NCBI GenBank assembly: GCA_001799695.1 | Contig: MGTY01000027.1 | Coordinates: 1 to 64,000 of the forward strand | From: Elusimicrobia bacterium GWA2_69_24 | Lineage (GTDB): Bacteria; Elusimicrobiota; Elusimicrobia; UBA1565 | Direction of reading: 5' to 3' | Length of the DNA stretch: 64,000 nucleotides | In this document: one piece after another, positions 52,499-63,031 of the stretch | How the letters are laid out: every line of letters starts with the position of its first letter | Position numbering within the stretch: the stretch's first letter is position 1 | Translations under genes and position numbers: made by a program | The notes under the pieces: model-generated | Databases searched by the model: none | What the model was told of the DNA's origin: nothing | Seen by the model: only the letters and a program-made list of their open reading frames with translations

Positions 52499-52528
52499 CC
52501 TGTACGAATGACCCCCCGTTTAAGTTCC
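52499..52528 (-). promoter_or_regulatory. GGAAC-N15-TTCGTACAGG motif over the RAYT start
   Basis: This matches, with the same spacing, the motif found upstream of the toxin-antitoxin operons (59324-59353, 61851-61880, 63002-63031). It overlaps the alternative start at 52530 and lies just upstream of the ATG at 52494, so transcription from it would give a short leader. The -10-like part has two mismatches to the others. Confidence 0.5.
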
Positions 52529-52532
52529 ATGC

Positions 52533-52579
52533 ATCGGAGGCCTGACCCCCAATCTACGATTGGGGGTCAGGCCTCCGAT
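52533..52579. repeat. Inverted pair of REP-like repeats (large palindrome)
   Basis: Two 22-base arms containing GGAGGCCTGACCCCC and its complement are joined by TAC. This is the head-to-head arrangement of REP sequences around a RAYT gene (BIME-like) and lies immediately upstream of that gene. It can form a perfect 22-bp stem. Confidence 0.9.
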
Positions 52580-52620
52580 TGGCCCTGGCGTTGATGGGGA
52601 AATGTCTTTACACTCTGCAC

Positions 52621-53934
52621 ATGGGGGTCGTGGGACGCCTTCGGGTGGCGGCGTTGTTCGCCGCCTCGTCCGTATTCGCCTGCGCCGGTCAAGCTGAATC
52701 GGCCGGGGAGGTTGCCCCGTCCCCCCTCCAGCGAGCCATCGTCCAGGCCGTCCTCAGTGCCCTCCCCGCGGGCCAGCAGAAGGGCCTGCCTCAGGGAGCC
52801 ACCTACGACCAGTACATCCTCCGCATGGACCTCAACCAGCGGGTGGCGGCCGCCGGCCGGTTGGCCCCCCTGGAGTCCCGCTTTCCGGCCCCGGAGCAAC
52901 TCCAGGAACTCGGCGAGGCCTATCTCAAGCTCGGCGCTTTCGCCGAGGCCACCCGCCTGGGCGGGGACATCCAGAAGAAGTTCCCCAACAGCGCCGTCGG
53001 CTTCATGCTGACCTCTAAGTCCCAAGCCGAGGGCGGCGACCTGGATGGCGCGAAGGCGTCGGCCATGCAAGGCGTCCAGGCGGACCCGAGCAACGCGTCC
53101 GCCATGACCTACTACAAGCTCCTGCGCGAAGGCCGAAATCCCACATTGCGCGTCGGCAGCGTGATGACCCCTGCCGCGGGCGGCGGCAATTTCCAGCCCG
53201 ACCCCTCTCTCGGGACCAACGGCGCCCAGACCGTCAACCGGGCGCTCAGCGAGCTCCGCAAGAGCAAGAACGGCAAGCGCATCATCCTCGCTATCGTTCC
53301 CGACTCCAACGGCACCGTCACCCTCGAACAGCTCCAGCAGCACGGCGTGGTCGTGCAGGGCGACTACAGCGACCGCGTCAAGGAGTTCGGCAAGGTCGAG
53401 AAAGTCAAGCGGCCGGACGGGTCCACCGTGTATGTCATCCGCCTAAACAAGGAAGTCCTCACCGAGGGCAACGACCCCCGCACCGTCGCCGCGGCCATGG
53501 GCGGCAAGCTCGACACCGTCCAGGAGCTGAAAGAGCACCCCCAGGAAGAGAATCCGGTCACCCTGCTGGATTGGCGCGATCGCACCGCCCAGGCCTACAT
53601 CCTTTTCGACCTCGGCGTGGTCCCCAACGCCACCTCCTTCTCCTCGCCTTTCACCCAGAGCGTTCTGTTCAACGAGCGCGTCCTCCAGGGCGGCCTGCAG
53701 CAGACCCCCCTCAACGCGGCCAACGGCGAGACCTACGGCGCGGACAACGACCGCATCTTCCAGCTCGTCGCCATCTCCGAGATATCCTTCAGGCTCACCC
53801 CGGTGGACCTACTCTCTCAGGTGAGCCGCCAGAAGAACCTGGGCCAGGACATCGCGGACCGGAAACTCCCCGGGTTCGAAACCCGGCAGCGTCAGTTCTC
53901 TCTAGACCTCAAAGCGGATTACCCAGCCCAGTGA
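52621..53934 (+). CDS. Exported TPR-like protein, paralog of 56615-57913
   Basis: This 437-residue protein (MGVVGRLRVAALFAASSVFA then CAGQAESAG) has a signal peptide with Cys at its end, so it may be a lipoprotein. The N-terminal half is helical, TPR-like (ELGEAYLKLGAFAEATRLGG, AEGGDLDGAKASAMQGVQADPSN). The C-terminal half is unassigned (GKRIILAIVPDSNGTVTLEQLQQHG, LLDWRDRTAQAYILFDLGVVPNA). It is homologous along its length with the gene at 56615. A lipoprotein gene follows after 8 bases, in both copies. I reject a longer start upstream inside the repeat region. Confidence 0.8.
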   Translation: MGVVGRLRVAALFAASSVFACAGQAESAGEVAPSPLQRAIVQAVLSALPAGQQKGLPQGATYDQYILRMDLNQRVAAAGRLAPLESRFPAPEQLQELGEAYLKLGAFAEATRLGGDIQKKFPNSAVGFMLTSKSQAEGGDLDGAKASAMQGVQADPSNASAMTYYKLLREGRNPTLRVGSVMTPAAGGGNFQPDPSLGTNGAQTVNRALSELRKSKNGKRIILAIVPDSNGTVTLEQLQQHGVVVQGDYSDRVKEFGKVEKVKRPDGSTVYVIRLNKEVLTEGNDPRTVAAAMGGKLDTVQELKEHPQEENPVTLLDWRDRTAQAYILFDLGVVPNATSFSSPFTQSVLFNERVLQGGLQQTPLNAANGETYGADNDRIFQLVAISEISFRLTPVDLLSQVSRQKNLGQDIADRKLPGFETRQRQFSLDLKADYPAQ

Positions 53935-53942
53935 GGAAACCC

Positions 53943-54608
53943 ATGAAACGACCTCTCGCGGGGGCACTCCTCTGCGTCCTTGCCCTAGCCGCCTGCCGCA
54001 AGGAAGCCCCCCCCGAATCCGCCGCCCCCCCTCTCGGCAAGGGCGGCGACCCTAGCCCGATGCTCGTCGGCGCCATCGCCCACAGCGGTGAATGGTCGGT
54101 GTTCGAGGACGCCTTCATCCGGTTCGAGTATCCCAAGTCCTGGCGCGCGGTCGGCCCGCTTGCCGGCGAGGAACTCTCCAAGCCCGGCTACATCGTCCTC
54201 TCCCCCGAGTCCGGCGGCTTGCCCGGCCCCATGGACATCTACCTCACCCACAAAGCCACCTTCGACACCGACCCCAATATCCGCGAGAAGATCAGCCGGG
54301 ACCTGACTGGCTACGTGAAGGACGGCTGGCGCCTACTGGGGAGCACCGAACAGATGACTGTTCCGGGGGGCCGCTGTACGCTCTACCGCGTGGAATCCAA
54401 GCAGAACGAGGCCTGCCCTTCCGGGGACGATCCCAAGGCCCTCTGCCACAACCTGCGCATCCAGACCGAGTGTTCCACCGATTCCGCCAGGCGAGTATCC
54501 GTCACCATGCTCCTGACGCCCTACCCTGAGCTGGGTAAGCCGGCCGAGGACACCCGGAAGCAACTCGGCATCTACGAGCGCTTCATCAAGAGCCTGAGCT
54601 TCAAGTAA
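53943..54608 (+). CDS. Lipoprotein, paralog of 57918-58571
   Basis: This 221-residue protein has a clear lipobox (MKRPLAGALLCVLALAACRK). The mature part starts with a low-complexity Pro/Gly segment, then GEWSVFEDAFIRFEYPKSWRAVGP, which is shared with the second copy (SIEWKVQDDSVIRFEYPPDRRAL). The C-terminus (YPELGKPAEDTRKQLGIYERFIKSLSFK) also aligns with the second copy. The FIRFEYP-W pattern resembles PsbP or DcrB-like exported domains, a weak similarity. It is paired with the TPR protein and probably works with it at the envelope. Confidence 0.78.
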   Translation: MKRPLAGALLCVLALAACRKEAPPESAAPPLGKGGDPSPMLVGAIAHSGEWSVFEDAFIRFEYPKSWRAVGPLAGEELSKPGYIVLSPESGGLPGPMDIYLTHKATFDTDPNIREKISRDLTGYVKDGWRLLGSTEQMTVPGGRCTLYRVESKQNEACPSGDDPKALCHNLRIQTECSTDSARRVSVTMLLTPYPELGKPAEDTRKQLGIYERFIKSLSFK

Positions 54609-54621
54609 TCGGGGGAAACTT

Positions 54622-54692
54622 GGGGGTCAGGTCTTCGAGTGGAGGTAGCCCACGAATCGGGGGGTAGTCCTTCAGTTGGGGGTCAGGCCTTC
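54622..54692 (-). repeat. REP-like repeats, one degenerate, at a gene end
   Basis: Minus-orientation copies GGGGGTCAGGTCTTC (54622-54636) and GGGGGTCAGGCCTTC (54678-54692) flank a degenerate copy at about 54659-54673. The last one encodes the final residues (EGLTPN) of the minus-strand lipoprotein gene. Confidence 0.75.
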
Positions 54693-62042: not shown

Positions 62043-62117
62043 GGGCAGAGTCCGTGCGCGACTGAGGCGCGGGGAAGCCGTGCAGGTCGGCGGGCTTGAA
62101 AGTGGGCACCAGTTCCT
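62043..62117 (-). repeat. 75-bp direct repeat, copy 2
   Basis: One mismatch to copy 1 (60979-61053). It lies 47 bases past the antitoxin stop of operon 3. Confidence 0.9.
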
Positions 62118-62164
62118 GCAGCTTGCGCAGGTCTTCCGATGCTCGCCGGCCGCACGGCCTCGTC

Positions 62165-62506
62165 CTAGGCGGCTACCATTCTCCTGATGAACGGGAGAAC
62201 CTGTCCCGCCTTATCCTCAGTGACGCAAAACGAGAAGAACCTCAGGCCCAGGGCTTCCGCCATCTTCGCTACTCGGGCCATCGACGCGGACCGCAGTCCG
62301 CCGCCCTTCAAGTCGCGCGAGATAGCGCTTTTTTGAGTGTGCATGACCCGTGCCAGATCGGCGTAAGTCCAATGCTTCTTTTCGAGCGCGTTGAGAAGCT
62401 GGATCTCCAACTTCAAGAGTTCGTAGCTCTCTTCATGACGCTTTCGATAGGCGGGGTTCGCCATCTTCCGGGCCAAGAGCCCGCGGGGCTTCTCATCGCT
62501 TTTCAT
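62165..62506 (-). CDS. XRE antitoxin, operon 3
   Basis: This 113-residue protein (from MKSDEKPRGLLARKMANPAY) has a central HTH (WTYADLARVMHTQKSAISRDLKGGGLRSASMARVAKMAEAL) typical of Gp49-partner antitoxins. It overlaps the toxin stop by about 14 bases. An ATG 4 codons upstream (62518) is possible, but its ribosome-site spacing is poor. Likely an autorepressor at 62936-62953. Confidence 0.82.
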   Translation of the reverse strand: MKSDEKPRGLLARKMANPAYRKRHEESYELLKLEIQLLNALEKKHWTYADLARVMHTQKSAISRDLKGGGLRSASMARVAKMAEALGLRFFSFCVTEDKAGQVLPFIRRMVAA

Positions 62507-62918
62507 AATAGGTTCCATCCTTTGCGCGTCTCAAATAGTCCCTCTTGCAGCGAGCGGCTGTTTCCAGGCATTCCATATCCGCCTTGGTCATCTGCTGAGA
62601 GTGCTTGTGATAGGCATTGGTGACGATGATCTTGGCATCTAGCGTCGTGAAAGTGAAGAAACGCTCGTCGCGAGGCTTCAGCGCGTAAATCTTATGCACC
62701 GGGTCCTCGATCCGGTAAAAAGTCTTCGGCATCAAAGTCCCCGGCTTTGCATCGCAAAAATACCGGATCAGATCGTCGAAACGGTCCTGGTCCAATTCGG
62801 ACAAGACACTGTAATAATCGAACGCCGGGACACGGCCCTCGGCCGTGAAATACCACTCCGCCGCGAAATAGTGACCAGCATGGATGAGGATGTCTTCATA
62901 TTTCAGTTGAGCAGGCAT
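62493..62918 (-). CDS. HigB/RelE-like toxin, operon 3
   Basis: This 141-residue protein (MPAQLKYEDILIHAGHYFAA...) has a Gp49-like core (FYRIEDPVHKIYALKPRDERFFTFTTLDAKIIVTNAYHKHSQQMTKADMECLE). The catalytic type is inferred from gene order and the core. The ATG at 62918 has GGAGG eight bases upstream; a GTG at 62933 is further and less likely. Confidence 0.78.
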   Translation of the reverse strand: MPAQLKYEDILIHAGHYFAAEWYFTAEGRVPAFDYYSVLSELDQDRFDDLIRYFCDAKPGTLMPKTFYRIEDPVHKIYALKPRDERFFTFTTLDAKIIVTNAYHKHSQQMTKADMECLETAARCKRDYLRRAKDGTYYEKR

Positions 62919-62933
62919 GTCTCCATCCTCCAC

Positions 62934-62962
62934 AGGTTAACAGATATGTGAACGGCTGTCAA
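62934..62962 (-). promoter_or_regulatory. Promoter and operator, toxin-antitoxin operon 3
   Basis: TTGACA (62957-62962), 17 bases and TAACCT (62934-62939) on the minus strand form a promoter. GTTAACA-GATA-TGTGAAC (62936-62953), a 7-4-7 palindrome with one mismatch, covers the -10 and spacer. Confidence 0.7.
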
Positions 62963-63001
62963 CCCCCCCGGGGGGGCCAATCGCCCGGCATCCCCATGGA
63001 G

Positions 63002-63031
63002 CATGTACGACCGAGGTGCCAAATAAGTTCC
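63002..63031 (-). promoter_or_regulatory. GGAAC-N15-GTCGTACATG motif upstream of operon 3
   Basis: The exact conserved halves with a different 15-base spacer, directed to operon 3, about 39 bases upstream of its -35. Confidence 0.6.

What the first reader, a model, noticed from the sequence alone, without database searches (positions are those of the whole stretch)
52499..63031. Shared GGAAC-N15-GTCGTACATG motif before three toxin-antitoxin operons and the RAYT gene
59324-59353, 61851-61880 and 63002-63031 have identical halves with identical spacing and different spacers; 52499-52528 has the same spacing with two mismatches in the second half; 60653-60682 is a degenerate copy. All face the downstream gene. 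Conserved halves with variable spacer is promoter-like, and GGAAC with a GTC-containing -10 is the ECF-sigma form. This would put several toxin-antitoxin pairs and a transposase in one stress regulon, an arrangement I do not know from the literature. A short conserved stretch after the motif (CATG, then GCATGG) leaves a repeat-element origin open.
Basis: partly seen in the sequence, partly recalled or inferred. Interest (0 to 1): 0.7.

Follow-up and report, generated by a model that had tools for sequence, protein, structure and literature searches.

The report
Competence sigma-factor regulon with mobile genes
The repeated DNA motif looks like the on-switch of one alternative sigma factor that, within an order of the poorly known bacterial phylum Elusimicrobiota, sits in front of a DNA-uptake gene and, in this genome and several close relatives, also in front of jumping genes, integron integrases and toxin-antitoxin genes.

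Summary
The motif is real (exact copies at 59324, 61851, 63002; near copy at 52499) and is best read as an ECF-sigma promoter, GGAACTWWW...TCR-N-TCGTACWTG. The host is inferred to be an Elusimicrobiota MAG. Genome-wide, GGAAC-N16-TCGTACWTG has 21 exact copies (24 with one mismatch, control 1). Two tandem copies precede an ECF sigma gene followed by zinc-finger anti-sigma and MucB/RseB genes; 23-24 of 29 related ECF loci carry the motif. It also precedes ComEC, ComF, ComM and SSB, an integron integrase, four RAYTs, four IS91-like transposases, HNH, ORF6N and methylase genes, and TA modules. In relatives, nearly all from one order, it lies before 38 of 45 ComEC genes, in 33 of them with the first in-frame start codon 7-10 nt after CGTA, against 0 of 30 DprA genes. 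Eleven of 14 RAYT and 7 of 19 Gp49-toxin genes in three genomes have it. Flanks share no sequence, which argues against a repeat element. I conclude that it marks an ECF-controlled DNA-uptake regulon into which ssDNA-acting mobile genes and TA modules are wired. No transcript or binding data exist; signal, leaderless start and TA co-induction are inferred.

The parts
63002..63031 (-). ECF-type promoter motif, exact copy, before TA operon 3
62496..62918 (-). toxin-like gene of TA operon 3 (weak Gp49/DUF891 match, E 0.0036, below the Pfam cut-off)
62168..62518 (-). HTH_3 antitoxin-like gene of TA operon 3
61851..61880 (-). ECF-type promoter motif, exact copy, before TA operon 2
61385..61750 (-). 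Gp49 (HigB/RelE-like) toxin gene of TA operon 2
   Evidence: PF05973, E 5.6e-24
61117..61497 (-). HTH_3 antitoxin gene of TA operon 2
60653..60682 (-). decayed copy of the leader (no GGAAC half)
59324..59353 (-). ECF-type promoter motif, exact copy, before TA operon 1
59277..59304 (-). separate sigma-70-type promoter, TTGACA-N16-TATAAT (12 of 12), between the motif and TA operon 1
58931..59275 (-). Gp49 toxin gene of TA operon 1
   Evidence: PF05973, E 4.3e-14
58590..58931 (-). HTH_3 antitoxin gene of TA operon 1
52499..52528 (-). ECF-type promoter motif (exact to GGAAC-N16-TCGTAC) before the RAYT gene; start codon 8 nt after CGTA
51601..52494 (-). RAYT (Y1 transposase, PF01797; also a sub-threshold match to a DnaA C-terminal helix)

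Best explanation
The motif is the -35/-10 promoter of one ECF sigma factor (gene at G000:C83:7189-7749). The sigma factor is held by a zinc-finger anti-sigma factor (with a hydrophobic stretch, seen by eye, that could anchor it in the membrane) and a MucB/RseB-type protein encoded just downstream, and it drives its own operon from two tandem copies. When released by a signal (unknown; an envelope signal is the guess from the RseB-like gene), it transcribes DNA-uptake and ssDNA-handling genes (ComEC, ComF, ComM, SSB; RecA and RecQ each in one relative). ComEC and most RAYT mRNAs would be leaderless or nearly so, because the start codon sits 7-10 nt after the -10; other targets, such as the integron integrase (21 nt) and RecA (89 nt), would have a leader. 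It also transcribes mobile or defence-like genes that carry the same promoter: RAYTs, IS91-like transposases, integron integrase, HNH, ORF6N, methylases and TA modules. Shown by sequence: the motif, its placement, its conservation, the operon structure. Inferred: that this sigma factor reads the motif, the leaderless start, the signal, and that TA modules are really co-induced.
For: ECF sigma, zf-HC2 and MucB_RseB by Pfam; two tandem motifs before the sigma gene. Motif before 23 of 29 related ECF loci, 24 with L096; RseB-like gene in 27 of 29, anti-sigma match or HxxxCxxC in 26 of 29. ComEC 38 of 45 loci, first in-frame start 7-10 nt after CGTA in 33 of 38; controls on the same stretches gave 0 in the first 30 loci and 1 in the next 14. 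DprA 0 of 30, its controls 2 (reverse complement) and 1 (reversed). RAYT 11 of 14 and Gp49 7 of 19 in three genomes, controls 0. NCBIfam over cut-off: ComM, SSB, RecA, integron integrase of the host and of G005; just under cut-off: integron integrase of G004 (255 of 265 bits) and a RAYT (79.4 of 80); well under cut-off but best hit: ComF. Of 81 proteins after the motif in 6 relatives: ORF6N 11, Y1_Tnp 8, N6_N4 methylase 4, HNH 4, Gp49 3, ComEC 2, ComM 2, integron integrase 2, ComF 2, RecA 1, SSB 1, RecQ 1. Two spacings one base apart are also reported for an experimentally mapped ECF regulon (16 and 17 bp; PMC6767563, passages; box borders not compared), and AAC in the -35 is typical of ECF promoters (PMC4598750, passage).
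Against: No expression, binding or TSS data. The genome has 4 other ECF-like matches at E<=1e-15, so another ECF could read the motif. ComM has it in only 18 of 47 loci and DprA in none of 30. Co-occurrence of sigma and motif is imperfect: G008 and G056 lack a close sigma match and lack the ComEC motif, but G045 and G046 have the motif with only weak sigma matches (MAGs 86% and 75% complete), and G021, G026 and G027 have a sigma match without an exact ComEC motif. Of all 60 ECF loci scanned, which partly repeat the same genes, 13 lack the motif. TA operon 1 has its own sigma-70-type promoter. 12 of 19 Gp49 genes and 3 of 14 RAYT genes lack the motif. Only one genome outside the order was included (G056), and it lacks the motif before ComEC and ComM.
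Confidence: 0.85

Rival explanations
1. The motif is the end of a repeat element (REP/MITE-like, perhaps mobilised by the RAYT) and only looks like a promoter.
For: Some leaders share sequence beyond the motif (60624-60664 and 61822-61862, 83%). In G003 several copies have near-identical spacers. A different repeat, TTGGGGGTCAGGCCTCC, is abundant in the window and lies within 12 nt upstream of two of the motif sites.
Against: Over 38 distinct sites the information content is 0-0.24 bit per position in the flanks and high only in the two halves, the two bases before and the 11 nt after them. ComEC genes in 14 genera (handles) carry it, mostly at a fixed distance to the start codon.
Confidence: 0.05
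2. The motif is the binding site of a transcription factor, not a sigma-factor promoter.
For: Sequence alone cannot exclude it; a regulator could act at a fixed distance from start codons.
Against: Two separated halves with a variable, 1-nt-flexible spacer, an AAC-containing -35 as is typical of ECF promoters, no obvious dyad symmetry (by eye), and presence at the gene of an ECF sigma factor itself.
Confidence: 0.06
3. The ECF regulon is real, but the TA modules of the window carry the motif only as passengers: they arrived in a repeat-rich array and are driven by their own sigma-70 promoters.
For: TTGACA-N16-TATAAT lies between motif and toxin gene in operon 1. The contig end holds a repeat-linked array of TA, AAA/DUF4143 and AbiEii modules. 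Only 7 of 19 Gp49 genes carry the motif.
Against: Gp49 genes in G002 and G006 and at G000:C34, outside this array, also carry it close upstream, and the spacers in the window differ while both halves are kept.
Confidence: 0.3

Closest known systems
Competence sigma factors of Firmicutes (ComX of Streptococcus, SigH of Staphylococcus and Lactobacillus sakei)
   Same: An alternative sigma factor switches on DNA-uptake genes (L. sakei SigH: PMC3364868, passages; the others recalled).
   Different: Those are SigH-group factors without a membrane anti-sigma/RseB operon (recalled); here it is an ECF factor with zf-HC2 anti-sigma and RseB-like genes, in another phylum, and the promoter set includes mobile and TA genes.
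RpoE-RseA-RseB envelope-stress systems (recalled)
   Same: ECF sigma, anti-sigma and MucB/RseB in one operon with an autoregulatory GGAAC-type promoter.
   Different: The target genes found here are DNA uptake and DNA processing rather than envelope repair; the anti-sigma has a zinc-finger domain (zf-HC2).
SOS-controlled integrons and competence-linked integrons (e.g. Vibrio; recalled)
   Same: An integron integrase tied to conditions in which single-stranded DNA is present.
   Different: The link here is a shared ECF-type promoter with comEC, before integron integrases of this genome, G004 and G005.
Putative competence pathway of Endomicrobium (Elusimicrobiota), PMC8809381 (passages read)
   Same: comEC, comEB, comF, comM, ssb, dprA and recA reported as usually conserved in the phylum and expressed in the endosymbionts studied.
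   Different: The term 'sigma' has 0 occurrences in its main text; the passages seen do not describe regulation.

Membership tests
ECF (group 4) sigma factor | Sigma70 region 2 and region 4.2, ECF superfamily score | tested here: met
   PF04542 E 1.6e-15, PF08281 E 1.6e-13; TIGR02937 84.1 bits over cut-off 42.9
ECF (group 4) sigma factor | Anti-sigma factor encoded next to it | tested here: met
   zf-HC2 30.6 bits over cut-off 22.2, reading frames overlap by 4 nt; 26 of 29 related loci
ECF (group 4) sigma factor | Its own gene preceded by the same promoter motif (autoregulation) | tested here: met
   two copies before the gene; 23 of 29 related loci; by sequence only
ECF (group 4) sigma factor | Transcription from the motif by the purified holoenzyme | not testable with these tools
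   bench experiment needed
Competence regulon | DNA-uptake genes share one promoter | tested here: met
   ComEC, ComF, ComM, SSB in own genome (ComF by below-cut-off matches); ComEC 38 of 45 loci
Competence regulon | DprA included | tested here: not met
   0 of 30 DprA loci with the motif directly upstream; operon read-through not tested
Competence regulon | Type IV pilus / ComEA genes included | not tested
   no search made
Integron cassette array (C27 TA island) | attC sites with RYYYAAC and GTTRRRY core sites | tested here: not met
   one GTTRRRY and three RYYYAAC in 13.8 kb, none at the repeats
Integron integrase (C3 gene) | Matches the integron-integrase subfamily model | tested here: met
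   TIGR02249 444.5 bits, cut-off 265
REP/MITE-type repeat element | Homology extending over the element, not only two short boxes | tested here: not met
   flanking information content 0-0.24 bit per position

The most novel reading that the evidence does not exclude
At least one order of Elusimicrobiota uses an ECF sigma factor with anti-sigma and RseB-like partner as its competence switch, and mobile genes that act on single-stranded DNA (RAYT Y1 transposases, IS91 Y2 transposases, integron integrases), together with TA and other defence-like genes, have repeatedly acquired its promoter, so that they are expressed exactly when single-stranded foreign DNA enters the cell.
Probability: 0.5. 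Interest if true: 0.92.

Novelty: new variant of a known kind. Interest (0 to 1): 0.8.

Why it matters
It would give a bacterial group known mostly from metagenomes a candidate competence regulator, of a type (ECF with anti-sigma and RseB-like partner) that none of the listed results of my ten paper searches ties to competence. It would also explain when RAYTs and chromosomal integron integrases are switched on: together with DNA uptake. The mostly fixed promoter-to-start distance at ComEC and the RAYTs makes candidate members readable directly from genomes of this order and predicts leaderless transcripts, so existing metatranscriptomes could test it.

Tried and rejected
Repeat-element origin: disfavoured by flank information content. 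Integron cassette array for the TA island: considered because the genome has an integron integrase and the modules share a repeat; rejected because core sites are missing. tRNA genes as regulon members in relatives: of 9 loci scanned, one (L123) has a tRNA-Asp starting about 13 nt after a motif; the others show no tRNA or none just after the motif on that strand; left open. LexA-like site: no dyad symmetry by eye, not pursued. Literature: ten searches, of which I saw listings (10 of 56 papers); no listed title or abstract start is about an ECF factor controlling competence. The only paper holding ECF sigma factor, natural competence and comEC together is on SigH of L. sakei. Only open-licence PMC papers were searched.

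Limits of counts. One search lists 44 own-genome matches to GGAACN{14,16}TCGTAY (13 control matches). Seven of them (C42:1232, C49, C58, C63, C97, C114, C127) were not in the set because I judged them chance-like and did not load them, and C27:69241 (GGAAAC) was added: 38 distinct sites (39 rows, one repeated by overlapping loci). Of the 38, I assign a downstream gene to 31 and none to 7. Three of the four IS91 assignments rest on alignment to the one tested by Pfam; one of the three HNH matches is just under the Pfam cut-off; the SSB ORF found starts inside the domain, so its start is uncertain; the ORF next to the C27:69241 motif has no Pfam match in the part searched, the AbiEii gene follows it. 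In one search the 7 family genomes gave 102 matches (control 9; G007 none). In the loci fetched I found 93 distinct sites and dropped 12 for lack of a complete, unmasked ORF of 60 aa within 120 nt, leaving 81; some of the 81 ORFs may be in the wrong frame. ComEC: 45 of 46 listed matches examined, G009 (cut by its contig end) left out; the search stretch runs from 200 nt before the open frame to the domain start. ComM: all 47 listed matches. DprA: 30 of 57 listed matches. ECF: 29 relatives' loci, the best-scoring ones given. By-eye gene names were used as leads. Start distances had no frame check and were replaced.
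Full report
What was claimed and whether it is there. The four motif sites are at the stated places and strand.

Whole genome. The window lies on contig C27 of a 4.2 Mb, 132-contig genome, 85% complete. The phylum is inferred: the named records that best match its sigma gene are Elusimicrobia/Elusimicrobiota MAGs, a few of them titled only 'bacterium'; matches from other phyla are weaker. 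GGAAC-N15-GTCGTA has 11 exact copies against 1 control; GGAAC-N16-TCGTACWTG has 24 at up to one mismatch, 21 exact, against 1 control. A second spacing, one base shorter, also occurs. Over 38 distinct sites the consensus is GGAACTWWW ... TCG-N-TCGTAC followed by WTGNGG; outside the motif, the two bases before and the 11 bases after it, information content is 0-0.24 bit per position. That is the profile of a promoter, not of a mobile repeat.

The sigma factor. Two tandem copies, C83:7062 and C83:7148, precede an ORF with sigma-70 regions 2 and 4.2, followed by a zf-HC2 protein overlapping it by 4 nt and a MucB/RseB-domain protein. In 29 loci of relatives, the best-scoring ones given, the motif stands before the gene in 23 (24 when the window is used), an RseB-like gene is present in 27, and an anti-sigma match or HxxxCxxC motif in 26. 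The six without the motif are L085, L096, L097, L100, L102 and L103; four of these (L097, L100, L102, L103) seem by eye to share one other upstream gene. Counting also the named records, which partly repeat the same genes, 47 of 60 loci have the motif and 0 have a control match.

The regulon in this genome. Behind the motif lie ComEC, ComM and SSB, and a ComF-like gene whose Pfam and NCBIfam matches are below cut-off; an integron integrase (TIGR02249, 444.5 bits); four RAYTs of the five Y1_Tnp genes found; four IS91-like transposases; three HNH proteins, three ORF6N proteins, a D12 methylase, a DUF1016 protein and a histidine kinase; four Gp49-type toxin genes including the three of the window, one of these a weak match; two AAA/DUF4143 genes, and an ORF without Pfam match that is followed by an AbiEii gene. 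With the sigma gene's two sites this makes 31 of the 38; seven sites have no gene I could name.

Conservation. ComEC is the strongest test. Of 45 ComEC loci (30, 14, plus the host's own), 38 have GGAAC-N15..18-CGTA in the stretch between 200 nt before the open frame and the domain, in 14 genera; in 33 of the 38 the first in-frame start codon after it lies 7-10 nt from CGTA. Controls on the same stretches gave 0 in the first 30 loci and 1 in the next 14. The seven without are L297 (G056, another order), L305, L314, L321 (truncated), L423, L424 and L425 (one mismatch); G041, which owns L314, has a second ComEC with the motif. ComM has it in 18 of 47, with 1 control match; in several of the loci without it the gene starts, by eye, right at the stop codon of the gene before, which suggests operons. 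DprA has it in 0 of 30, while its control scans gave 2 and 1 loci, so the motif is not simply common before genes, and chance matches occur at that low rate. In the host and two relatives 11 of 14 RAYT and 7 of 19 Gp49 genes have it, controls 0; in 10 of the 11 RAYTs the start codon lies, by eye, 8-9 nt after CGTA. In six family members 81 proteins after the motif include 11 ORF6N, 8 RAYT, 4 N6_N4 methylases, 4 HNH, 3 Gp49, 2 ComEC, 2 ComM, 2 ComF, 2 integron integrases, and single RecA, SSB and RecQ. All relatives but one come from the same order, so nothing here speaks for the phylum as a whole.

Mechanism. Shown by sequence: an ECF, anti-sigma and RseB-like operon behind its own motif, and a shared promoter-like motif at a mostly fixed distance from start codons of ComEC and RAYTs. 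Inferred: the sigma factor reads the motif; those transcripts are leaderless or nearly so; release follows an envelope signal. The common thread is single-stranded DNA: ComEC imports it, SSB, RecA and ComM handle it, and RAYT, IS91 and integron integrases act on it (enzymology recalled). I therefore favour mobile and defence genes having joined, or hitch-hiked on, a DNA-uptake regulon. For the window's TA operons this is weaker: operon 1 has a perfect sigma-70-type promoter after the motif, so the ECF promoter would add inducible expression or be a passenger.

Known or new. An alternative sigma factor switching on competence genes is known in Firmicutes (PMC3364868, passages). Competence genes are reported as usually conserved in the phylum and expressed in Endomicrobium (PMC8809381, passages); the term 'sigma' does not occur in its main text. 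No listed result or 77 describes an ECF competence regulator; subscription papers were not searched. I rate it a new variant of a known kind.

Noticed in passing
C27 58.5-70.8 kb (window 58500-64000 and L019): An island of TA, AAA/DUF4143 and AbiEii modules on one strand shares a repeat: besides the 204-bp query itself, four places match 51-111 bp of it at 88-99% identity; no match elsewhere in the loci held. It is not attC-like.
   Followed up: partly
window 43422-59381, 14 places: TTGGGGGTCAGGCCTCC repeat (up to 2 mismatches), often in 19-nt tandem, with one perfect 22-nt inverted pair (52533-52579) directly before the RAYT promoter; shuffles expect 0.04. Possibly a REP family of a RAYT.
   Followed up: partly
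G000 C33, C38, C84 (L023, L058, L054, L114): All four IS91-like copies read CATGGAAC at the -35; IS91 is recalled to insert next to GAAC, so insertion might place the element at an existing -35 half. Two copies (C38, C84:61732) share upstream sequence, which speaks for a promoter carried by the element.
   Followed up: partly
G003 (L120, L125, L130, L135, L139, L143, L197): In this relative several motif copies also share most of the spacer, some with CCCACA and TGTGGG arms around the -10; a second regulator or recent spread is possible.
   Followed up: no
L123 344-419: A tRNA-Asp gene starts about 13 nt after a motif copy in G005.
   Followed up: no
window 52579-53934 and 56615-57913: Two paralogous ORFs (a 90-nt stretch is 76% identical), each followed by an ORF that looks alike by eye.
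   Followed up: no
L053 6141-6518, L054 5739-6107: Two small related proteins starting M-x-LYWND, no Pfam match at E<=0.01, both starting 21 nt after CGTA of a motif copy.
   Followed up: partly
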